From positions 2,340,501-2,404,500 of the forward strand of contig NZ_JPON01000001.1 in assembly GCF_000733935.1 (NCBI RefSeq): a stretch of DNA of 64,000 bases, read 5' to 3'. Source of the DNA: Methylomarinum vadi (lineage in GTDB: Bacteria; Pseudomonadota; Gammaproteobacteria; Methylococcales; Methylomonadaceae). This document shows positions 12,401 to 30,594 of the stretch, in pieces. The translations under genes and the position numbers were made by a program. Numbering within the stretch: the stretch's first letter is position 1; the number at the start of each line of letters is the position of its first letter. Under the pieces are notes generated by a model. The model did not search any database. It was not told the origin of the DNA and saw only the letters and a list, made by a program, of their open reading frames with translations.

Positions 12401-12872
12401 TACGCTGGTCGGCAAGGCCTACGATGCCGCCGGCAATGTCGGCACATCCCAGGCTGTCGCTTTCACGGTCGACAACACCGGCCCCGGAGCAACGACTTAT
12501 CACGAAAGGGAAAGCAACGGCACCACCCAAACGGCCAATAGCGTCGGCAACGCGGTCACGACTATCGTCGGGTATATCGAGAACTCGATCGACAAAGATT
12601 ATTTCAAGATCGAACTGCTTGCCGGCCAGGATCTGACGGTGAACATGACCGGGCCCGCCAGGGACTACGATCTTTACTTGCTGAACAGCTCCGGCAGAAC
12701 CTTAAGAAGCAGCGCCAATGTCGGCTCAAGCGAATCGGTGAATTACACCAATTCGGGTTCGTCAATCGCCAGCTTTTACCTCAAGGTCGTCGCCTTCGGC
12801 GGCGCGTACAGCAAAAACGAGCCTTATAATCTAACCCGAATATTTCATGATAGAGGCGGGCAAGTTTGTTGA
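9498..12872 (+). CDS. Secreted M4 (thermolysin-like) metallopeptidase with Ig-like and PPC domains, 3' end formed by IS DNA
   Basis: This 1124-residue protein has a signal peptide (cleavage near SIAA-D, residue 23), then an FTP/PepSY propeptide region to about residue 210. The M4 domain has zinc ligands HEYSH 368-372 and Glu392 in GGLNEANSD, 24 residues after the first His as in thermolysin, plus a catalytic-type His464 in DVHYSSGPMNRAF. After it come an Ig-like domain (about 570-650), a carbohydrate-binding-like NGSFE domain (about 654-800), two near-identical Ig-like repeats (about 815-900 and 910-995) and a C-terminal PPC-like domain (DYFKIELLAGQDL). The last dozen codons (from 12835) are the end of an IS1380 copy, so the natural C-terminus is lost by a few residues. 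It is probably exported by a type II route. Confidence 0.9.
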   Translation: MNRFLFALTLVASLSLSPYSIAADTLREELALKAQQQLLGMRDAFGLNENHSFQVKNLQQDALGHTHVRLQQYYHGIRVWGGEAITHTQANRMALPPTSMLKPDIRVDIEPKLSGAEALAVIEHDNAPRAGFTLKPEPELVIYPQTIRHLQANKALRRRQEPNAADFATEVTGYRLAYYVHTERNKLGDTQHTDYLIDAHNGEIIEKWDSLMTANAIGAGKSQYSGTVPLNSNSVTSGFELKDSTRPSSGSNMVYNLDHATSGTGTLYTDADNTWGDGNNYQEDPEPTTSANGQTAAVDAAYGIQLTWDMYKNVFGRQGLDGQGTATYARVHYDYAYDNAFYSKYCKCITYGDGTKLQTLTALDVAAHEYSHGVCTMTADLIYKGESGGLNEANSDIMGTMAEFYSRGANGKGNKIPDTGGNWTHGEQMTTPAYPLKMRFLYKPSKDGKSPDAWSPGLKDIDVHYSSGPMNRAFYFLSQGATTSGDTSSTYLPQGMTGIGNDKAAKIWFRAMTVYMTSSTDYLGARIACINAARDLYATAGPEEIAVWNAFAAINVGDPWTGPDNPPVVNVSVNGDKGVLTFSASASDDQGVVKVEFFLDGALVGTKTAPPYTMDYDSRMQNDGAHTLVARATDTTGQYTDASKTITINNGQLIRNGSFEKGYGVGWSNTTGMQIGAILNETPYDGTKMAKFCGSGSQKSVALFQTVAIPATTPAATLSYALHIATEETSSSVRDTLAVQLRNTSGDILTTLATHSNLNAKAGYQLHSHDVSAYKGRSVQVYFLCAEDSALATGFILDKVNLNVSGDGGTGEDNVAPNVSASVSGSSGNITFSATASDNVGVVKVSFYVDNSLKGSDQTAPYIMTLDSKTLANGSHTLIAKAYDAAANVGTSTPVTFTVNNATEDDEAPTIAVGTSGNGGPITFNATASDNVGVSKVEFYVDNVLKGYDTTAPYSLVLDSLTLGNGSHTLVGKAYDAAGNVGTSQAVAFTVDNTGPGATTYHERESNGTTQTANSVGNAVTTIVGYIENSIDKDYFKIELLAGQDLTVNMTGPARDYDLYLLNSSGRTLRSSANVGSSESVNYTNSGSSIASFYLKVVAFGGAYSKNEPYNLTRIFHDRGGQVC

Positions 12873-12922
12873 TATTTGATAAAATTCAGTTACTTATATT
12901 GAATTTAACCAACAACTTGCCC

Positions 12923-13849
12923 ATGACAAATTGTACTCCAGCTCAGATAGAATTTCCTCCCTTAAAACGCCGTAAAATAGACGCCCAATTCAGTGGTGGA
13001 GCGATCACCAGTGATGGCGGTGTGCTGTTGTTAAGAGCGATTGACCAGCAGTTAGGGTTAACCGAACGGATAGCGGCGCAGATTCCTGACGCCAGAGCCC
13101 CTGACCGCGTGCAACACTCTGTGATCAACCTGCTCCGTCAACGGGTTTATGGCTTGGCGTGTGGGTATGAGGATTTGAATGATCATGACACGCTCAGAAA
13201 TGATATCGCCTTTCAGACGGCGGTGGAAAAGGATCAGACATTGGGCAGCCGATCCACCTTGTGCCGGTTTGAGCAGCAGGCGGATCGCGCCTTGATGTGG
13301 CGCGTTCATGAGGAACTGGTGGCGCAGTTTATCGCTTCGTATGAGACACCGCCGAAATCGTTGATCCTGGACTTCGACGCCACCGATGATCCGGTTCATG
13401 GCGAACAGGACGGACGTTTTTTTCATGGCTACTATCGGCACTATTGTTTCCTGCCGTTGTATGTCTTTTGCGGCCATCATTGCTTGGTCAGTTATCTACG
13501 CCCCAGCAATATTGATGGCGCCAAGCACAGCTGGGCGATTCTGGCGTTGCTGGTCAGGCGCTTGCGTCAGGCTTGGCCGGACGTTGACATCACGTTTCGC
13601 GGCGATGGCGGTTTTTGTCGCCATAAGATGCTGAGTTGGTGCGAGCGGCATCGCGTTCACTATATTGTCGGGTTGGCCAAAAATAAACGCTTAACGCGCT
13701 TAAGCCAACCCTGGATTGAACAAGCCCGGCAACAGTTCCAAAGCGAACAGCAGAAACAGCGTCTCTTTACCGATTTCCACTATAAAGATCGTCGGTGGCG
13801 TCGAAGTCCAGGACCAACGATTTCGGCGGTGTCTCATACGAAGCGATAA
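12923..13849 (+). pseudogene. IS1380 transposase fragment, rightward arm
   Basis: The first about 288 codons match the intact IS1380 transposase, including both the DFDATDDPVHG and FRGDGGFCRHK blocks. At 13787 the reading frame runs into the inverted arm and continues for about 20 unrelated residues to a stop. The YxxRGxxEN block with the catalytic Glu is absent, so it should be inactive. Confidence 0.88.
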
Positions 13850-14255
13850 ACTGCGCCACCAGTTCCTCATGAACGCGCCACATCAAGGCGCGATCCGCCT
13901 GCTGCTCAAACCGGCACAAGGTGGATCGGCTGCCCAATGTCTGATCCTTTTCCACCGCCGTCTGAAAGGCGATATCATTTCTGAGCGTGTCATGATCATT
14001 CAAATCCTCATACCCACACGCCAAGCCATAAACCCGTTGACGGAGCAGGTTGAGCACAGAGTGTTGCACGCGGTCAGGGGCTCTGGCGTCAGGAATCTGC
14101 GCCGCTATCCGTTCGGTTAATCCTAATTGCTGGTCAATCGCTCTTAACAACAGCACACCGCCATCACTGGTGATCGCTCCACCACTGAATTGGGCGTCTA
14201 TTTTACGGCGTTTTAAGGGAGGAAATTCTATCTGAGCTGGAGTACAATTTGTCAT
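13767..14255 (-). pseudogene. IS1380 transposase fragment, leftward arm
   Basis: About 155 codons of the transposase N-terminus, from MTNCTPAQIEF to LDFDATDD, are followed by a short tail read from the other arm. Only the first catalytic Asp region is retained. It shares the EKDQTLGSRS and QADRALMW variants with the rightward arm. Confidence 0.87.
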
Positions 14256-14400
14256 GGGCAAGTTGTTGGTTAAATTCAATATAAGTAACTGAATTTTATC
14301 AAATATCAACAAACTTGCCCGCCTCTATCATGAAATATTCGGGTTAGATTTACGTTGCGAAGCGTTGTCGGAAGTTAAAATAATAACAGAGGAATAGCGT

Positions 14401-20230: not shown

Positions 20231-20498
20231 TTTCTAAGCTGCCTGTGCGGCAGTGAACGGTGAGGATGAACCATACGGCTTGTTTGTGTTTTTCTAAGCT
20301 GCCTGTGCGGCAGTGAACTAAAGAACAGCCGGCCGACCGAGACATCGTGTTTTCTAAGCTGCCTGTGCGGCAGTGAACGAGCGTGAGGCTAAAATAAACG
20401 CCGAAATATTTTTCTAAGCTGCCTGTGCGGCAGTGAACTATTTCATTCGTCGACATACAAGAACTCTCGTTTTCTAAGCTGCCTGTGCGGCAGTGAAC
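20231..20498 (-). CRISPR. Type I-F CRISPR mini-array: five 28-bp repeats, four 32-bp spacers, no adjacent cas genes
   Basis: Repeats at 20231-20258, 20291-20318, 20351-20378, 20411-20438 and 20471-20498 are identical by eye, with a strict 60-bp period. Read on the minus strand each begins GTTCACTGCCGCACAGG and ends CAGCTTAGAAA, with the CTGCCG/CAGGCAG stem of type I-F repeats. Every repeat is also preceded on the plus strand by T, so the unit could be 29 bp. The orientation puts the AT-rich leader to the right (20499 onward). No cas1, cas2-3 or csy gene is visible in the window, so any activity depends on cas genes elsewhere. Confidence 0.95.
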
Positions 20499-23884: not shown

Positions 23885-24083
23885 GTCGATCCCCCTTACG
23901 TTAGCGATTGCCTGAGGAGCATTAATGCCATTAAGCCAAACAATTTTCAATTTAACAAGCCGAATACGACGCGAAAATTGACGTCACCGATATGTATTTA
24001 TTCGAGCACCCGTTAATCCAGTCTTGTCATTGTTATTTATAAGATATTGATAAATAATAAATAAATTATTTTATGGCACTACA

Positions 24084-24112
24084 TTGACAAAGCTGGGTTA
24101 ACATTTTACGGT
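24084..24112 (+). promoter_or_regulatory. Candidate sigma-70 promoter of the Wadjet operon
   Basis: A perfect TTGACA at 24084-24089 is followed after 17 bp by TACGGT at 24107-24112, a weak -10. It lies 56 bp before the jetC ATG, in an AT-rich gap (23951-24167). An AAGGA ribosome site sits 6 bp before the ATG. Confidence 0.45.
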
Positions 24113-24167: not shown

Positions 24168-27100
24168 ATGTCCGATCACTATCAACTGAAGAAGATCATC
24201 CTGATAGACAGCTTCTGGCCCGGCAAAACCGTTTTGCTGAAACTGGACGGCCACACCAACCTGGGCGGCACCAACGGCGCCGGCAAGACCACTTTCTTAC
24301 GACTGATGCAATTGTTCTGGGGCGAACGGCCCAGCAATATCGTCTCCGGCAGCGGCAGCAAGAAAGGCTTTCTCGACTATTACCTGCCGCGCGCCAGCAG
24401 TTATTTGGTCTATGAATACCAACGTCCCTACGGCCAGGTCTGCCATGTCATGGTGCAAAGCGACGGCCGCGGAGCCAAATACAAATTCATCGACGCCCCA
24501 TACGACCAGGAATATTACATTGCCGAGAACGGTTTTCCCCGCGACAGCCAAAGTGTCGAGCGGCTCTATCGAAGCACGGCGGAAATCTCCAAATTCGTCG
24601 CGGTCGACGACTATTGCAGCATCATCCAATGCCATCGCGTCAGCAGCGGTAAAAAGTGGCTGCGGCCCTTGCAGCAACGCTTCGCGATGGGGTCCGCGCC
24701 GCTTACCCATATCGAAAAAGTGATCGGCTCGGTGATCGAAAAAATCGGCGATTTTGACGTCATCAAACAAATGCTAATCGACATTTCGCGTAACAAGCTC
24801 AGCCATACCTTTCTGCAACAGGAAGACGAGCAGCAACCTTTTCAACTCAACAAACAGCATATCGACGCCTGGCTTGCCGATTTGACCGCGGCCCGCGAAA
24901 TCGAGGCCAAACGCGATTATTTCGACGATTTACTCGGCACAATCACGGCATTGAAGGAGACGCTGAAGACCTTATCGCATCTGCATTTTCTAACGCTGGA
25001 CCAGTACAAGCATTGCCAACAGCTAGACAAAACGCTCACGCAAACCCTGAAAGACCTAGCGCAACAGCGCGAGCAGCTGCAACAGCAATACGACCGGGAC
25101 TTGGAGCCGAAAAACGACGAGCTGATCAAATACAAGGAACAGTTCAACGAACTGAAATACCAGATCGAAAGCCTGGAGGAACAAAAACTCGCTTACGAAC
25201 AGCAAGACGCGGAAAGCTTTGCGTTCGAGGCGTCGCTCGCCGACGAATACGCCGAACGGCAACGTAATATTCAGGAAGAGATCGACGCGCTGGAAAGCAA
25301 GACCCAGGAAATCAAACGCCATTACGAGCAACGCCTAAATGAATTAAAACACCGGCACGACAGCCAACTCAAAACCTACCAGCAGCAACTCACCGAAGCG
25401 AAATTCGAGCAGGAGAAAAACCTGCGCGAATGCGAAGCGGAGTTCCAGCAGCGCAAGGAACGATTGCAGCAGGACAAGGACGACAGAATCACTCCACTCA
25501 ACGAGCAGAAAACGCGCTTGTCGACCGAATTCGAGGTGACGAAAAACCGCCTGCAACACCCGCAGATTCCCGAAGCCCTCACCGAACAACAATGCAAAAA
25601 CCGGCAAGCGCTGGATGAAGCCGGCAGAGAGACCAAATCGGCCTATCAGGCGCAGGCCGATGCGCAAAACGACCATCAAAACGCCCTCGGTAACTATCAG
25701 CAGATCGAGCGCCAATTGCAACAGAAAAAGACGGAACGAATACAGGTACAGCAACGCCACGAGCAATGCCTTAAACGTCTGAGCCCCGATCCCGGCTCGC
25801 TGCAACATTACCTGGACCAGGAAGCCGAAGGCTGGCAACAAACCATCGGCCGCGTCATCGCACCGGACTTGCTGGACCATACCGAACTCGAACCGCACTG
25901 GAGCGACGGCGCGAACAAGGATTTTTACGGCCTCGGCATCAATCTCGATAAGCTGGCCGAGCGCAGCTATCTGACCTCGGACAAACTCAAGCTGGAACAA
26001 CAAGAAAAGGCCTTGTTCGAGCAGCTGGACGACCTCGCTACGGAATGCGAAAAGCTCGAAGCCAGCCTGCACGCGGCCAACAAACTGCGCGAGCACGCCA
26101 AGGCGGCCATGGACAAGGAGAAACAACGCCTCGAACGCGCCAAGAAGCTCGAACAAACCCTGCAAGACGAGGCCGATGCGCTGGCCGACCAGATCAAGGT
26201 GGAAACGGAAAAAGCCCGTCAACGCATACGACAGGACAGCGAACGCCTGTCCGCCGAGATAGCGACCTGCCAACACACGATAGACAGGATTAGCGGCGAA
26301 CACCGCGAGGCCCTGCAAAACCTGCAAAACGAACTCCTGGCCCGCAAAGGCATTATCGAATCGGACGGCGACAACCTGGCCGCGACGATTAGCGAGCAAA
26401 TCGCCGCGGACAAAGCCCATTTCAAGCAAGAACAAACGCGCATCTCGCAGCAATTGAAAAGCGACCTGCAAAGCAGCGGCGCCGACGATACCATCGTCAA
26501 GCTGGCCGAACAACGCGACGAAGCCAAGCGCCTGGAAAGGCAAGCGCGCAGCTTTCAGCAAAAAGACCGGGAATACCGGGACTGGTTGAAAAAACGCTGG
26601 AATCAGCATCCAGGACTTTGCCGGGACAGAGATACCTGCCAGAGCAAAATCCAACACGTGGAGACGGAGATAAGCCAGCTGAAGCAAGACTTCAAACGTC
26701 ATCGTCTCCAACTGAACCAGCAAATCGGCATCCAGGAAGAACAACTGAAGAAAAATCGCAGCTTGTCGAATCAACTGGAAAACTGCCTGGAACAGTTGAA
26801 AAACAACCCGCCGGTACGGGAAGAAGGCCAGCCCCACTATGCTCCTGGCACATTGCCGCAATTGAGCCAGGACTCTATCAAAGAGCGCAAACGCCATGAA
26901 CAAGTTATACATAGCGGCAAGCAGACGCTGGTGCAGCTATTTCTCAAGCATCACCGCAGCCAGTTGGCGGAGGCCTGGCAACAAGCCTTGGACGCTTCCT
27001 CGCAGCAAAGCCCCTTCTTTCAGGCCGAAGCCTTGGAGATCGAACAACCTTTACGCGATATTCTGCAAATGATCGAACACGTCAAGCAGGCCACCGCCCA

Positions 27101-27842
27101 ACAAATCGAGTTGCACGCCTCCGGCGTCAACACCTTTTACCAGCATCTGCATAATTTCGACCGCGCGATCAAAGCCACCGGCACCGAACTGTCCAAATAT
27201 GTCAGCGAGGAACGCTATTTCGCCGCGCTGGGCGATATCACCGTCAACGTCCGCTCCAAGATGAGCGACCTGGAATACTGGCAGGCCCTGAAAAAGTTCG
27301 GCGACCATTACGGCCAGTATCGCGACAATGCCGATCTGGGCCTGCACGACGATATACCCGAGGCGCTGGTGCAGGCGATGGGCGAACTGACCGCGCTGCT
27401 GCCTTCGGCCGGCGTCAAGATCAAACATTTGTCGTTGTTCGACATCGAATTCAGCATTCACGAAAACGGCCAGCTCAAGCACGCCCGGAACGCCAGGGAA
27501 CTTAAGGACGTCAGCTCCACCGGCCTGTCCTATCTGGCCTTGATCACATTCTTCACCGGCGTCACGTCGATGTTGCGGAAACAGAACCCGACCGTGGTTT
27601 GCTGGCCTATCGACGAGCTGGGCGATCTGGCGCCGGAAAATATCGAGGCGATGATGCAGCTACTGGAGAAACAAAACATCCATATTCTGTCGGCCACGCC
27701 GACCGCCGACCGTCATGTGCTCGGCTTGTTCAGGCGGCGCTATCTGTTGAGTCAACAAAAACTGCATGAAGTCGAGCTGCCGCAAAGCAAACTCGAACAA
27801 TTATTAACCGCCTTACCGAAGCAGGAGGATGCCCATGTTTAA
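24168..27842 (+). CDS. jetC: Wadjet SMC-like ATPase JetC (MukB/MksB type)
   Basis: The 1224-residue protein has the architecture of a MukB/DUF3584-type SMC. An N-terminal ATP head contains Walker A GGTNGAGKT at 33-41. A long Gln/Glu/Lys-rich coiled coil follows from about residue 280 to 1000, interrupted near 560-610 by a hinge-like globular part (GWQQTIGRVIAPDLLDH). The C-terminal head has an ABC signature SSTGLSYLAL at about 1115-1124 and Walker B WPIDELGDL at 1146-1154. In Wadjet it extrudes DNA loops on plasmids so that JetD can cut. The stop overlaps jetB, and four genes run together. Confidence 0.87.
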   Translation: MSDHYQLKKIILIDSFWPGKTVLLKLDGHTNLGGTNGAGKTTFLRLMQLFWGERPSNIVSGSGSKKGFLDYYLPRASSYLVYEYQRPYGQVCHVMVQSDGRGAKYKFIDAPYDQEYYIAENGFPRDSQSVERLYRSTAEISKFVAVDDYCSIIQCHRVSSGKKWLRPLQQRFAMGSAPLTHIEKVIGSVIEKIGDFDVIKQMLIDISRNKLSHTFLQQEDEQQPFQLNKQHIDAWLADLTAAREIEAKRDYFDDLLGTITALKETLKTLSHLHFLTLDQYKHCQQLDKTLTQTLKDLAQQREQLQQQYDRDLEPKNDELIKYKEQFNELKYQIESLEEQKLAYEQQDAESFAFEASLADEYAERQRNIQEEIDALESKTQEIKRHYEQRLNELKHRHDSQLKTYQQQLTEAKFEQEKNLRECEAEFQQRKERLQQDKDDRITPLNEQKTRLSTEFEVTKNRLQHPQIPEALTEQQCKNRQALDEAGRETKSAYQAQADAQNDHQNALGNYQQIERQLQQKKTERIQVQQRHEQCLKRLSPDPGSLQHYLDQEAEGWQQTIGRVIAPDLLDHTELEPHWSDGANKDFYGLGINLDKLAERSYLTSDKLKLEQQEKALFEQLDDLATECEKLEASLHAANKLREHAKAAMDKEKQRLERAKKLEQTLQDEADALADQIKVETEKARQRIRQDSERLSAEIATCQHTIDRISGEHREALQNLQNELLARKGIIESDGDNLAATISEQIAADKAHFKQEQTRISQQLKSDLQSSGADDTIVKLAEQRDEAKRLERQARSFQQKDREYRDWLKKRWNQHPGLCRDRDTCQSKIQHVETEISQLKQDFKRHRLQLNQQIGIQEEQLKKNRSLSNQLENCLEQLKNNPPVREEGQPHYAPGTLPQLSQDSIKERKRHEQVIHSGKQTLVQLFLKHHRSQLAEAWQQALDASSQQSPFFQAEALEIEQPLRDILQMIEHVKQATAQQIELHASGVNTFYQHLHNFDRAIKATGTELSKYVSEERYFAALGDITVNVRSKMSDLEYWQALKKFGDHYGQYRDNADLGLHDDIPEALVQAMGELTALLPSAGVKIKHLSLFDIEFSIHENGQLKHARNARELKDVSSTGLSYLALITFFTGVTSMLRKQNPTVVCWPIDELGDLAPENIEAMMQLLEKQNIHILSATPTADRHVLGLFRRRYLLSQQKLHEVELPQSKLEQLLTALPKQEDAHV

Positions 27843-28467
27843 GTCGGTCATCGAAACCTTGCTCGGCGGCCAGTTCATTTGCCCGACCGCATTCCCCGAC
27901 GCCTTCGACTATTTGTCGCAAGCGCCAAATGCGGACAAGGTGAACGCCTACCTCGAACCGCTGGAACGGGAATTGTGCAGCCTGGACGACGAATTGTTCT
28001 ATGCCGCCTACACCGTGGTCGACGACGGCAATCGCGGCGCCATCCGCGAGGCGTTCGCCGAAATCCGCTCGCAACTGCGCCCGGTCGTCGAATGGATGGA
28101 CATGGTCATGACCGCGCTGGGCCAGGACATGCCGATCCGGGCCCGCGACGAAATCCGTCTGCATCGATTGTTGCTGGCAATCGAACACGAACCGTCGCTG
28201 ACGGAACAGCTCAATAGGCTGACCCGGCTGAGCCTGTTCAAAACCAATAAAACCAATGTCTCCGAGCAATTGCTGTGGGTGTTGCAGAAACTGGAGCAAT
28301 GCGGTTACCTGGTCAAACCCAATGCGCAAGGCTCGCTGTACATCGCCACCGGCAAGATCAATTATCTGCACCGGGTCATCGCCTTTCTCAACGACGCCGA
28401 AGCGTTGGAGCTGGACCAGCATAACGCCAACCGCGATGACGGCGAGCAACAGGAACTGTTCCTATGA
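27835..28467 (+). CDS. jetB: Wadjet MukE-like subunit JetB
   Basis: The 210-residue protein starts at ATG 27835 with AGGAGG 7 bp upstream; an ATG at 27829 is too close to that site. It is helical and Leu-rich, with a winged-helix-like C-terminal part (EQLLWVLQKLEQCGYLVK, then YIATGKINYLHRVIAF). Size and position between an SMC and a kleisin gene fit MukE/MksE/JetB, which binds the kleisin dimer. It overlaps jetC by 8 bp and jetA by 4 bp. Identification leans on the operon. Confidence 0.75.
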   Translation: MFKSVIETLLGGQFICPTAFPDAFDYLSQAPNADKVNAYLEPLERELCSLDDELFYAAYTVVDDGNRGAIREAFAEIRSQLRPVVEWMDMVMTALGQDMPIRARDEIRLHRLLLAIEHEPSLTEQLNRLTRLSLFKTNKTNVSEQLLWVLQKLEQCGYLVKPNAQGSLYIATGKINYLHRVIAFLNDAEALELDQHNANRDDGEQQELFL

Positions 28468-29693
28468 GTTTCGATCAAGAGCAAATCGCCGGCCTGATCC
28501 GCAAACTGGCGAGCGCCGATCGACTGCTGGCCCAGACCTACATCGACGGCACGGTGTTCGTCGACGAGGACAACCGCAACGCGATCGACGGCCTGAAGAA
28601 ATCCGGCATCCTGCGTACCGCCGATTTCAGCGACGAATACCGTCTGACCGGCGATATCAAGCGACTGATCGACCGATTGTTGCTGCGCAACCAACGTTAT
28701 CAGCAGAATATCGACATGGCCAAGATGATCCTGAGCGTCGAGGAGGACATCGAAGACTACCGCCGCGCGCTGGAGCGCAACGAGCAGGAAGAAGCCCATT
28801 ATCATCTCGAGCAAATCGACGACACCCTGTACGAAGCGTTGGAATCGTTGGAGCACAGCCTGACGGTCATGTTCGCGGCGATCACCAGCCAATTCGGCTT
28901 CGTCGCCTCGCTGAACAGCAAGATCCGGCAAAACCAGCGGGCGCTGGCCTATGCCCAACGCCTGGTGCGGGAACTGAACCAGGTCAATCTGAACGATTGT
29001 TACGAATGGCTGAACTGGGCCGCGATTCCGACCGAGTTGAGTCGCAAGATCATCCGCTTCATCGACCAGTACAAGAGTATCGTCGAGCGGCTCGGCAGCA
29101 TCGTCGATCGCATGAAGACGCTGCTGTTCAAATTGCGCCTGCAGGAACAAACCGCCAACCGCGCCCGGGCGATGGCCCAGTTTCTGCGCCAGCACCCGGA
29201 ATGGGAGCCGCTCGAATGGAGCGAGGAGGCGGAAGTTCCCAAACTGTTAAGACGCGAGCCCGGCCTGAAACTGCAATCCGGTCTCAACACCGCCAACCCG
29301 GCGTTGCAGAGCGACTTCGCCGCGATCGTTCAGGAACTGAGACGCCAATCAAAACCCGTCGCCCCGTTGAGCCGGGACGGCGCGGCCACGCCTGTGGACA
29401 CGCAACAGCCGGAACCCATCGAATACGATCAAGACCTGTATGAAACCCACATCGAAACCTTGTTCGCACATACCCTGGAACGGCAAGGACGCAAAATGTC
29501 GGCCTTGCATTATTGGCGCGACCAGCGCTTGCAGGTCAAGGCGGCGCTCTGGCTGGACATGGTGTTCGCGCAATATTGTTGTCTGCCGCAGCGCATGCGC
29601 CGGGCCATTGCGCTGGAACTGCAAGGCGATTGCTTGGCCGGCTTCAACGGCAACCAGGTCATCGACGAAATCCTGCTGCAGCGGGTGGGATAA
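28464..29693 (+). CDS. jetA: Wadjet kleisin JetA (MukF/MksF type)
   Basis: The 409-residue protein has an N-terminal winged-helix-like region (RKLASADRLLAQTYIDGTVFV to SDEYRLTGDIKRLIDRLL), a helical middle with repeated Glu/Arg helices (residues 85-260), and a C-terminal folded part beginning QDLYETHIETLFAHTLE, matching the N-WHD/helical neck/C-WHD plan of MukF-like kleisins. Start ATGA overlaps the jetB stop and the jetD ATG follows the stop by one base. The kleisin would bridge the JetC heads. Confidence 0.75.
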   Translation: MSFDQEQIAGLIRKLASADRLLAQTYIDGTVFVDEDNRNAIDGLKKSGILRTADFSDEYRLTGDIKRLIDRLLLRNQRYQQNIDMAKMILSVEEDIEDYRRALERNEQEEAHYHLEQIDDTLYEALESLEHSLTVMFAAITSQFGFVASLNSKIRQNQRALAYAQRLVRELNQVNLNDCYEWLNWAAIPTELSRKIIRFIDQYKSIVERLGSIVDRMKTLLFKLRLQEQTANRARAMAQFLRQHPEWEPLEWSEEAEVPKLLRREPGLKLQSGLNTANPALQSDFAAIVQELRRQSKPVAPLSRDGAATPVDTQQPEPIEYDQDLYETHIETLFAHTLERQGRKMSALHYWRDQRLQVKAALWLDMVFAQYCCLPQRMRRAIALELQGDCLAGFNGNQVIDEILLQRVG

Positions 29694-29694
29694 G

Positions 29695-30594
29695 ATGAAC
29701 CGCCAGCTATTCAAATGGATCAGCGAACTGGTCACCGATAAACCGACCCAAACCACGGAGCGTCGCGTAAGTGCTCAGGGAAAGTCGGTGCTGGAACGCT
29801 ATCACTGCGGTCATGAGGCCAAGAACCGTTTGGTTTTCACGCCTCGGGACAAACTGACGCTACGACGGCGGGTCAAGGACGAACTGGGCCTGGACCCGTT
29901 CACGACCCCCGAATTGCCCGACGACCGTATCGCGATGGCGAAATATCATGGCAACGAAAAGCTCGCGGCCAAGCCGGCCAGCCATGATCATCTGTTGCTG
30001 AACGGCCCGGACGGCAAGCTGCGCCTGAATGGCCGGCTCGTCGATCTGCAATCGCAGCAAATACCGTCAGCCGGGCTGTTTTGCCTGAACAATGGAATAG
30101 AAACGGTCGAGCATGAGGTTATCGTGGTCGTCGAAAACCTGGCCATAATGTCGGTTGGCCCCGCCTTGCAACTGCCGCCTCGGGCGCAAAGCGCCTTGTG
30201 GGTCTATCGCGGCGATCATAAAACCGGCGCGAAAGCGGACATCTGCCGCCAATTCCTCACCCGTTTCGGCGCCGAAAAAACCGTCATCGTGTTCGGCGAC
30301 ATGGACCCGGAAGGCCTTGAAATCGCCTTGACGATGCCTCATGCCGATTACTGGATGGGCCCTGCCGAAAACGTCTGGCGCACCTGTCTGCGCAGCCGCC
30401 AAGCCAACCGCGACGGCTTCGACCTGCAAAGCCAGGCTGTAGTTTACCTGCAACATTTAGCGGACAACAACACCCTGACCGTTCCGATGAAAAACCTGTT
30501 GGAGTGTTTACGCCAAGAACGCAGTACTTACCGGCAAGAGCACATGGCCAGCCATCGCATCCCTTTAGACATTTTCTCTCTCGCGGGCGAATAA
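29695..30594 (+). CDS. jetD: Wadjet nuclease subunit JetD (TOPRIM, DUF2220/MksG type)
   Basis: The 299-residue protein carries a TOPRIM metal site: Glu147 in VIVVVENLAIM and the acidic pair Asp202/Asp204 in FGDMDPEG (201-208). The N-terminal half (RRVSAQGKSVLERY, then RDKLTLRRRVKDELGL) resembles a winged-helix, topoisomerase VI-like DNA-binding domain. JetD cleaves plasmid DNA once loop extrusion stalls. It is shorter than most JetD proteins I know (about 380-400 residues), so the N-terminal domain may be reduced or the type different. It is the last gene of the operon. Confidence 0.82.
   Translation: MNRQLFKWISELVTDKPTQTTERRVSAQGKSVLERYHCGHEAKNRLVFTPRDKLTLRRRVKDELGLDPFTTPELPDDRIAMAKYHGNEKLAAKPASHDHLLLNGPDGKLRLNGRLVDLQSQQIPSAGLFCLNNGIETVEHEVIVVVENLAIMSVGPALQLPPRAQSALWVYRGDHKTGAKADICRQFLTRFGAEKTVIVFGDMDPEGLEIALTMPHADYWMGPAENVWRTCLRSRQANRDGFDLQSQAVVYLQHLADNNTLTVPMKNLLECLRQERSTYRQEHMASHRIPLDIFSLAGE

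What the first reader, a model, noticed from the sequence alone, without database searches (positions are those of the whole stretch)
24168..30594. Complete Wadjet-like plasmid-defence operon with gene order C-B-A-D
Four overlapping genes encode an SMC-like ATPase, a MukE-like protein, a kleisin-like protein and a TOPRIM nuclease. The described Wadjet order I know is jetABCD (MksFEB with MksG), where the kleisin comes first. Here the SMC gene is first and the kleisin third. JetD is short at 299 residues. This could be a variant type or a reorganised operon. It sits next to a CRISPR array, an IS256 and an integrase relic, i.e. in a defence island.
Basis: partly seen in the sequence, partly recalled or inferred. 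Interest (0 to 1): 0.75.

Follow-up and report, generated by a model that had tools for sequence, protein, structure and literature searches.

The report
Wadjet-like SMC nuclease operon, unlisted lineage
A methane-eating bacterium carries a four-gene machine, a ring-shaped DNA motor joined to a likely DNA-cutting enzyme, that resembles the plasmid-destroying Wadjet systems but belongs to a separate lineage missing from the defence catalogue searched, and some relatives have lost the cutter while keeping the motor.

Summary
In detail: four abutting genes (24168-30594) encode an SMC ATPase (C), a MksE-like KITE (B), a probable MukF/JetA-like kleisin (A) and a Topo VI-A/JetD-like TOPRIM nuclease (D). 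It resembles Wadjet but fails PADLOC types I-III: no JetA or JetB hit, JetC/JetD only 10-20 bits. C is Pfam DUF3584 (753 bits), D is DUF7281 (144 bits). The order is no local rearrangement: 90 of 90 distinct loci with C, B and A detected read C-B-A, D last in 51 and absent in 39. Type I, type II and MukBEF examples read A-B-C. SMC heads form their own clade. The set also sits on plasmids and in one large cyanophage. In one family (taken as Alteromonadaceae) 34 of 37 loci lack D; one keeps a gutted D remnant, and one sister pair shares flanks with and without D. This echoes the proposed route from armed Wadjet to unarmed condensins. The "defence island" is weak. Plasmid cleavage is inferred. 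Older Mks surveys and newer defence models could not be checked.

The parts
24168..27842 (+). C: SMC-type ATPase, 1224 aa, Pfam DUF3584; Walker A GTNGAGKT, signature SSTGLS, Walker B WPIDEL
   Evidence: Pfam PF12128 753.5 bits over 11-1195; motif residues counted over 41 relatives; own clade in SMC-head trees
27829..28467 (+). B: MksE-like KITE, 212 aa (210 aa from ATG 27835)
   Evidence: Pfam MksE PF21980 25.6 bits, E 1.8e-5, just under the 27-bit cut-off; orthologues pass it: L097 29.0, L205 28.8. No structure was predicted
28464..29693 (+). A: probable kleisin, 409 aa; N-terminal winged-helix-like part, helical middle, low-confidence linker, C-terminal helix-strand part
   Evidence: AlphaFold2 model, pLDDT 75.8, pTM 0.42; best PDB hit MukBEF chain 7nz2_C1 6.8e-4, then 9gm7 6.3e-3 and 3euh 9.0e-3; VIA Z 12.4 MukBEF head module, 10.2 Wadjet-II JetABC, against unrelated helical bundles up to 11.7
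29695..30594 (+). D: JetD/MksG-like TOPRIM nuclease, 299 aa, DUF7281; conserved acidic residues E147, D202, D204
   Evidence: PF23947 144.3 bits; model pLDDT 90.5; Topo VI-A 3e-5, MksG 8b7f 2.1e-3; VIA Z 12.8 Topo VI-A, 12.6 MksG, 11.6 JetD, 10.2 Spo11, next fold 5.9 (a TOPRIM primase)
24011..24108 (.). Interspersed repeat just upstream of C; 15 further matches (79-97% identity, whole or part) elsewhere in the genome; not part of the mechanism
20231..20498 (.). Small CRISPR array: 5 repeats of 28 nt, period 60 (repeat recalled as I-F type); probably unrelated

Best explanation
The operon encodes a Wadjet-like DNA-restriction complex of a separate SMC lineage. C (SMC), B (KITE) and A (kleisin) should form an ATP-driven, probably dimeric ring that loads on DNA and translocates or extrudes it; D, a homologue of Topo VI-A/JetD/MksG, should dimerise through its TOPRIM domain and cut DNA when the motor stalls on a small circular molecule. 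Shown here by sequence and models: the families or folds (A and B less firmly), conserved motifs, fixed order C-B-A-D, a separate clade, presence on plasmids and in one phage, and loci where D is gone and C-B-A kept. Inferred: complex formation, loop extrusion, cleavage, preference for circular DNA. D-less copies are most likely unarmed, condensin-like complexes derived from armed ones.
For: Subunits: C DUF3584, B near MksE, A MukF-like model, D Topo VI-A/JetD fold; D matches by profile the D of a MksBEF-like A-B-C-D group, E 4e-13. One unit: 51 loci C-B-A-D and 39 C-B-A, no other order among loci with C, B and A; C and D identities co-vary over 22 loci, r 0.948, 0 of 2000 permutations as high. 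Not the housekeeping condensin: canonical Smc in 6 of 6 genomes tested, MukB in 0 of 6; DUF3584 over the cut-off in 11 of 61 related genomes, three of them fragments only. Mobile carriage: eleven Pseudomonadota plasmids opened carry C-B-A-D, ten of them over 100 kb; type I JetC is found on 10 plasmid records, 9 of them over 100 kb; one 209-kb phage record. Mechanism by analogy: JetABCD/MksBEFG (PMC10586767, PMC10123090, passages).
Against: No activity data. A is a modest model (pTM 0.42), and unrelated helical bundles reach nearly the same Z; profile comparison of A and of B with the MksBEF-like group finds nothing convincing (probability 7%); sequence searches of the PDB with A and B found nothing. 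D shows no hit to DUF3322, the N-terminal domain that hits the type I JetD of L155, and its first ~95 residues are barely covered by the structural matches. An apparently intact C-B-A-D sits on a 40-kb plasmid, which a Wadjet-like size rule would target. 39 of 90 loci have no D, so the core must also do something else. Several MksBEF families are on record (PMC7485682, passage), and this may be one of them.
Confidence: 0.7

Rival explanations
1. It is an ordinary Wadjet (type I, II or III) whose genes were shuffled or have diverged.
For: Same four kinds of subunit; PADLOC labels its JetC models as DUF3584 domain; weak JetD3/JetD1/JetD2 hits.
Against: No JetA or JetB hit and JetC at most 13.3 bits, whereas two type I loci and one type II locus score hundreds of bits with every subunit. 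Pfam DUF3584 does not hit the two type I JetC tested at E 0.01. Separate SMC clade. Order fixed in 90 of 90 loci. Type III was compared only through its HMMs.
Confidence: 0.07
2. It is mainly a chromosome-organising or repair complex (MksBEF-like); D is a topological or repair enzyme, not a restriction nuclease.
For: 39 of 90 loci keep C-B-A without D; Walker A and B residues are kept in the 17 D-less C proteins among the 41 examined; in family f146 presence of C agrees within 24 of 26 genera with two or more genomes (0 of 5000 shuffles as high), so it is largely inherited vertically there.
Against: In the window's family all 8 genomes with full-length C in the sample have D (one D cut to 113 aa near a contig end; in one genome C and D lie on different contigs), and SMC relics occur; D is a JetD/MksG fold; carriage by plasmids and a phage.
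Confidence: 0.17
3. It is a defence against phages or other invaders, perhaps by cell killing, rather than a plasmid-specific system.
For: Carried by plasmids and by one phage, as weapons between mobile elements can be.
Against: Closest mechanistic relatives (JetABCD, MksBEFG) act on circular plasmids (PMC10586767, PMC10123090, passages); no toxin-like subunit seen. Not excluded.
Confidence: 0.12

Closest known systems
Wadjet / JetABCD (types I, II, III) and MksBEFG
   Same: SMC + KITE + kleisin + TOPRIM nuclease in one operon; D fold matches JetD/MksG (Z 11.6-12.6); type I JetC is also found on large plasmids
   Different: Order C-B-A-D; SMC is Pfam DUF3584, which does not hit two type I JetC; D is 299 aa and has no DUF3322 hit, unlike the L155 JetD; outside the PADLOC models; separate SMC clade
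MksBEF-like group with a DUF7281-like D (controls L036-L039, L043, L085, L089; likeness to P. aeruginosa PAO1 MksBEF is recalled)
   Same: MksE-family KITE (112 bits in L039), short D related by profile, four-gene operon
   Different: Order A-B-C-D and SMC of only 917-936 aa, kleisin and KITE not detectably alike, own clade
MukBEF
   Same: MukF is the nearest solved fold to A; D-less copies match its SMC-KITE-kleisin make-up
   Different: Order F-E-B; 1486-aa MukB outside the clade; MukB not found in the 6 genomes tested
Topo VI-A / Spo11
   Same: TOPRIM fold of D
   Different: D is encoded with an SMC complex; a Topo VI-B partner was not searched for beyond the four genes
Bacteroidota DUF3584 operon (L207, Phocaeicola plasmid record)
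   Same: DUF3584 SMC 183 bits, MksE 140 bits, JetD-like D
   Different: Order A-B-C-D by ORF position and size (A not recognised by profile); branches outside the C-B-A clade

Membership tests
Wadjet types I-III (PADLOC-DB 2.0.0) | JetA, JetB, JetC and JetD models of one type hit the four proteins | tested here: not met
   JetA none, JetB none, JetC at most 13.3 bits, JetD at most 19.7 bits; controls, best model per subunit: type I L155 and L160 315-1864 bits, type II L078 403-1525
Wadjet | Kleisin-KITE-SMC-nuclease order A-B-C-D | tested here: not met
   Window C-B-A-D; type I L155, L160 and type II L078 A-B-C-D. Type III order not examined
Wadjet | JetD fold: TOPRIM nuclease with conserved acidic residues | tested here: met
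   E147/D202/D204 in 26 of 26
Wadjet | Restriction of small circular plasmids | not testable with these tools
   needs an experiment
Pfam DUF3584 SMC | PF12128 over cut-off, full length | tested here: met
   753.5 bits against 31, residues 11-1195
Pfam DUF7281 | PF23947 over cut-off | tested here: met
   144.3 bits against 27
MksE / KITE | PF21980 over cut-off | tested here: inconclusive
   window 25.6 against 27; orthologues L097 29.0 and L205 28.8 pass
Kleisin (MukF/JetA) | N- and C-terminal winged helices round a helical middle and linker | tested here: inconclusive
   model agrees and the best Foldseek rows are MukBEF entries, but pTM 0.42 and helical background near
Lamassu | LmuB SMC with LmuA effector and LmuC | tested here: not met
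   only a 16.4-bit LmuB hit (residues 251-536), no LmuA or LmuC hit

The most novel reading that the evidence does not exclude
This is an undescribed major lineage of nuclease-armed SMC-KITE-kleisin complexes, traded among chromosomes, large plasmids and at least one jumbo phage, and inside it the nuclease has been lost many times to leave working condensins: a replayed and still-visible version of how MksBEF and MukBEF may have arisen from defence systems.
Probability: 0.45. Interest if true: 0.8.

Novelty: new variant of a known kind. Interest (0 to 1): 0.62.

Why it matters
In the annotated plasmid records opened, these genes are called "ATP-binding protein" and "hypothetical protein" (one D is "DUF2399 domain-containing"), and the 2023 PADLOC models do not recognise the window's set, so likely plasmid-restriction systems in methanotrophs and other Gammaproteobacteria may be going uncounted; if active, it could hinder genetic work in strains such as Methylotuvimicrobium buryatense 5G, which carries it (L058). 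A review proposes that MksBEF, and MukBEF too, came from Wadjet-like systems by loss of the nuclease (PMC10586767, passages). Here an armed and an unarmed copy lie in matching surroundings at about 77% DNA identity (L072 and L124), so that idea becomes directly testable.

Tried and rejected
Rejected: canonical Wadjet; Lamassu; an operon shuffled here alone; a defence island. Led nowhere: sequence searches of the PDB with A and B (none) and with C (12 rows, none an SMC protein by name, mostly coiled-coil proteins); with D only Topo VI-A at E 0.014 and 1.3 and one unrelated row; viral-contig scan with D (3 pattern matches, no relative); profile comparison of A and B with the MksBEF-like group (their alignments, include L090, whose genes run D-C-A-B by ORF size and which may not belong there). 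CorA, STAT and syntaxin rows in the VIA list of A are taken as helical background. Synteny as proof of vertical inheritance was weak: 54 of 550 between-genus pairs of D-less f146 loci share a flanking gene, against 4 of 120 pairs in the window's family. The papers PMC3179180 (Petrushenko 2011), PMC6387622 (Doron 2018) and PMC9637719 (Deep 2022) are not held, so whether older Mks surveys already list this family is open.

Literature checked: DUF7281 in 0 papers; DUF3584 in 5 papers (listing), one of them opened by passage (PMC9674854: Wadjet 0 times); Wadjet with JetD 17 papers (listing); other searches (15 of 28 listed; listings). Passages only were read of PMC10586767, PMC10123090, PMC10512200, PMC12287153, PMC12647877 and PMC7485682. 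No statement is made about preprints or closed journals.

Dropped or limited rows: of the 115 loci with any hit, 7 duplicates and 18 loci lacking C, B or A (D alone 10, C alone 4, A-D 2, B-A-D 1, C-D 1) were left out of the 90; thresholds were C 80, B 40, A 20 and D 15 bits, best hit each. Among the 51 with D are loci with a short or split gene (L057, L067, L091, L200, L202). The C trees used 41 DUF3584 proteins and a subset with others, both by the quick method without bootstrap and with long branches flagged. Searches scored only two candidates per genome, so their counts may be low. Family f146 is called Alteromonadaceae because the named Bowmanella and Paraglaciecola loci fall among its members.
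Full report
What is there. The window lies in a single-contig 4.34-Mb genome of a Methylococcaceae bacterium (judged from the named relatives). Four genes on the + strand read C (SMC, 1224 aa), B (212 aa), A (409 aa), D (299 aa), overlapping or one base apart. C matches Pfam DUF3584 nearly from end to end (753.5 bits), B falls just short of Pfam MksE (25.6 against 27 bits), A hits no family over a cut-off, D matches DUF7281 (144.3 bits) and, below cut-off, JetD_C. PADLOC's Wadjet models give at most 13.3 bits for JetC and 19.7 for JetD and nothing for JetA or JetB.

What the two unclear proteins are. The AlphaFold2 model of D (pLDDT 90.5) matches topoisomerase VI-A (Foldseek E 3e-5) and the C. 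glutamicum MksG nuclease (2.1e-3). The second aligner gives Topo VI-A 12.8, MksG 12.6, P. aeruginosa JetD 11.6 and Spo11 10.2 and 9.5, then drops to 5.9 for another TOPRIM protein. The acidic residues E147, D202 and D204 are unchanged in 26 of 26 D proteins. The model of A is weaker (pLDDT 75.8, pTM 0.42) but has the kleisin plan. Its only PDB match under 1e-3 is a MukBEF chain (7nz2, 6.8e-4), and six of the next seven rows are MukF, MukEF or MukBEF entries. Z is 12.4 for a MukBEF entry and 10.2 for a type II JetABC entry, with unrelated helical bundles up to 11.7. So D is firm, and A is likely rather than proven.

The order. Over all distinct fetched loci with C, B and A detected, 90 of 90 read C-B-A; D follows in 51 and is absent in 39. 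Controls read the other way: type I loci L155 and L160, confirmed by PADLOC, type II L078, E. coli mukF-mukE-mukB, and seven loci of a MksBEF-like group with a short SMC and a related D (L036-L039, L043, L085, L089 by ORF position and size; families of L039; D-D profile E 4e-13). Type III order was not examined. One further locus with a weak DUF7281 match, L090, seems to run D-C-A-B; it gave no hit and is not counted. In trees of the SMC heads the DUF3584 proteins form one group (SH-aLRT 99; 91 in the wider set) apart from type I, MksBEF-like, Smc and MukB proteins; the method is the quick one and several long branches make deeper joins unsure. A Bacteroidota plasmid record (L207) has a DUF3584 SMC but A-B-C-D order and branches just outside, which suggests, weakly, that the order was changed once.

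Where it occurs. DUF7281 reaches E <= 0.001 in 15 of 61 genomes (the window's and its relatives; this includes the MksBEF-like group) and in 13 of 369 genomes of the class. DUF3584 is over its cut-off in 11 of 61 (three of them only fragments), 10 of 369, 37 of 79 genomes of family f146 and 22 of 398 of the phylum, all 22 in the window's own class. Six of six genomes tested keep canonical Smc and none has MukB. In PLSDB, 40 of 72,556 records match C in whole or in part at E 1e-10, 36 of them at least 100 kb long, median 336 kb; many of these matches are short (13 records, of 266 to 455 kb, match only query residues 7-205), and the one such record opened holds only an SMC fragment. Type I JetC gives 10 records at E 1e-30, 9 of them at least 100 kb. 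No size baseline for plasmids in general was computed. Of the records opened, eleven Pseudomonadota plasmids carry C-B-A-D (40 to 904 kb, ten over 100 kb), two of them with C or C and A split (L200, L202); two Acinetobacter plasmids (20 and 50 kb) and the IncHI2A plasmid keep only an SMC fragment. Against the size idea, the 40-kb plasmid carries an apparently whole set. One of 50,697 phage records, Dolichospermum phage Dfl-JY45, holds all four genes; of ten other proteins of that record, PHROGs matched four to phage families, one of them weakly to a terminase.

The unarmed copies. In family f146 (taken as Alteromonadaceae), 34 of 37 full-length loci lack D. A scan of 4 kb downstream of A in these loci found no other D than the three known ones and one remnant. 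In that locus, L138, the N- and C-terminal pieces of D remain in different frames with the middle, including the TOPRIM core, gone, while C, B and A are open. Bowmanella L072 (D present) and L124 (D absent) match on both sides of D at 76.5 and 80% DNA identity, with 1,332 bases between the matched blocks in one and 227 in the other. In another family L181 and L182 (with D) and L183 (without) share the next gene, judged by its first 26 residues. On the C tree the D state needs at least 7 changes (shuffled mean 13.2), and C and D identities go together over 22 armed loci (r 0.948), which favours an old D lost repeatedly over many gains but does not prove it. Walker A and B residues are kept in the 17 D-less C proteins examined, and presence of C agrees within 24 of 26 genera with two or more genomes (this count includes the three armed loci), so the complex is maintained there. 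Canonical Smc is present as well in the two D-less genomes tested, so it would be a second, accessory condensin, as MksBEF is in P. aeruginosa (PMC7485682, passages).

How it most likely works. By analogy with JetABCD (PMC10586767 and PMC10123090, passages), C-B-A should be the DNA-translocating motor and D the cutter that fires when the motor stalls on a small circle. Subunit families, co-inheritance and mobility are supported here; extrusion, size sensing and cleavage are inferred. D is shorter than the type I JetD proteins examined and has no DUF3322 hit, so the autoinhibition described for JetD may differ.

Filing. It works, as far as sequence can tell, like Wadjet; it is not a member of PADLOC Wadjet I-III, since two defining features (type-specific models and A-B-C-D order) were tested and not met. 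I file it as a new variant of the SMC-nuclease kind. What could lower the novelty is an earlier Mks family survey (several MksBEF families are mentioned in PMC7485682, passage) or a newer defence catalogue that I could not read.

Setting. Within about 8 kb on either side are a 5-repeat CRISPR array with Cas1 matches only elsewhere in the genome, an IS256-type transposase, an integrase-family ORF, a THAP4-like haem-binding protein, an AraC regulator, a redox protein, a metal ATPase, a GMC oxidoreductase and an autotransporter. That is a place with mobile-element traces rather than a defence island.

Noticed in passing
L205 3407-9762 (PP438435.1 86907-93262): Dolichospermum phage Dfl-JY45 (209 kb) encodes the full C-B-A-D set; the only such record found among 50,697 phage records. 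Possibly used against plasmids or rival phages, or on host DNA.
   Followed up: partly
   Followed up: yes
L207 3209-9526: Bacteroidota plasmid record with a DUF3584 SMC in A-B-C-D order, a possible sister of the C-B-A-D lineage.
   Followed up: partly
L036-L039, L043, L085, L089: MksBEF-like A-B-C-D operons with a 917-936 aa SMC and a DUF7281-like D, also poorly covered by PADLOC (at most 26.1 bits in the two loci scanned).
   Followed up: partly
L090 2619-8156: A further arrangement, apparently D-C-A-B, with a 956-aa SMC and a weak DUF7281 match.
   Followed up: no
window 24011-24108: Short repeat, with 15 further matches elsewhere in the genome, directly upstream of C.
   Followed up: no
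L092, L093, L095, L099: SMC relics: only short parts of C remain, signs of recurrent loss of the system.
   Followed up: no
L199 (40-kb Acinetobacter plasmid): Apparently intact C-B-A-D on a plasmid smaller than the Wadjet size limit in the papers: self-immunity or a different rule.
   Followed up: no
window 12866-14312: Two facing ORFs (327 and 181 aa) with nearly identical N-terminal parts, the first a DDE transposase: probably an inverted IS pair.
   Followed up: no
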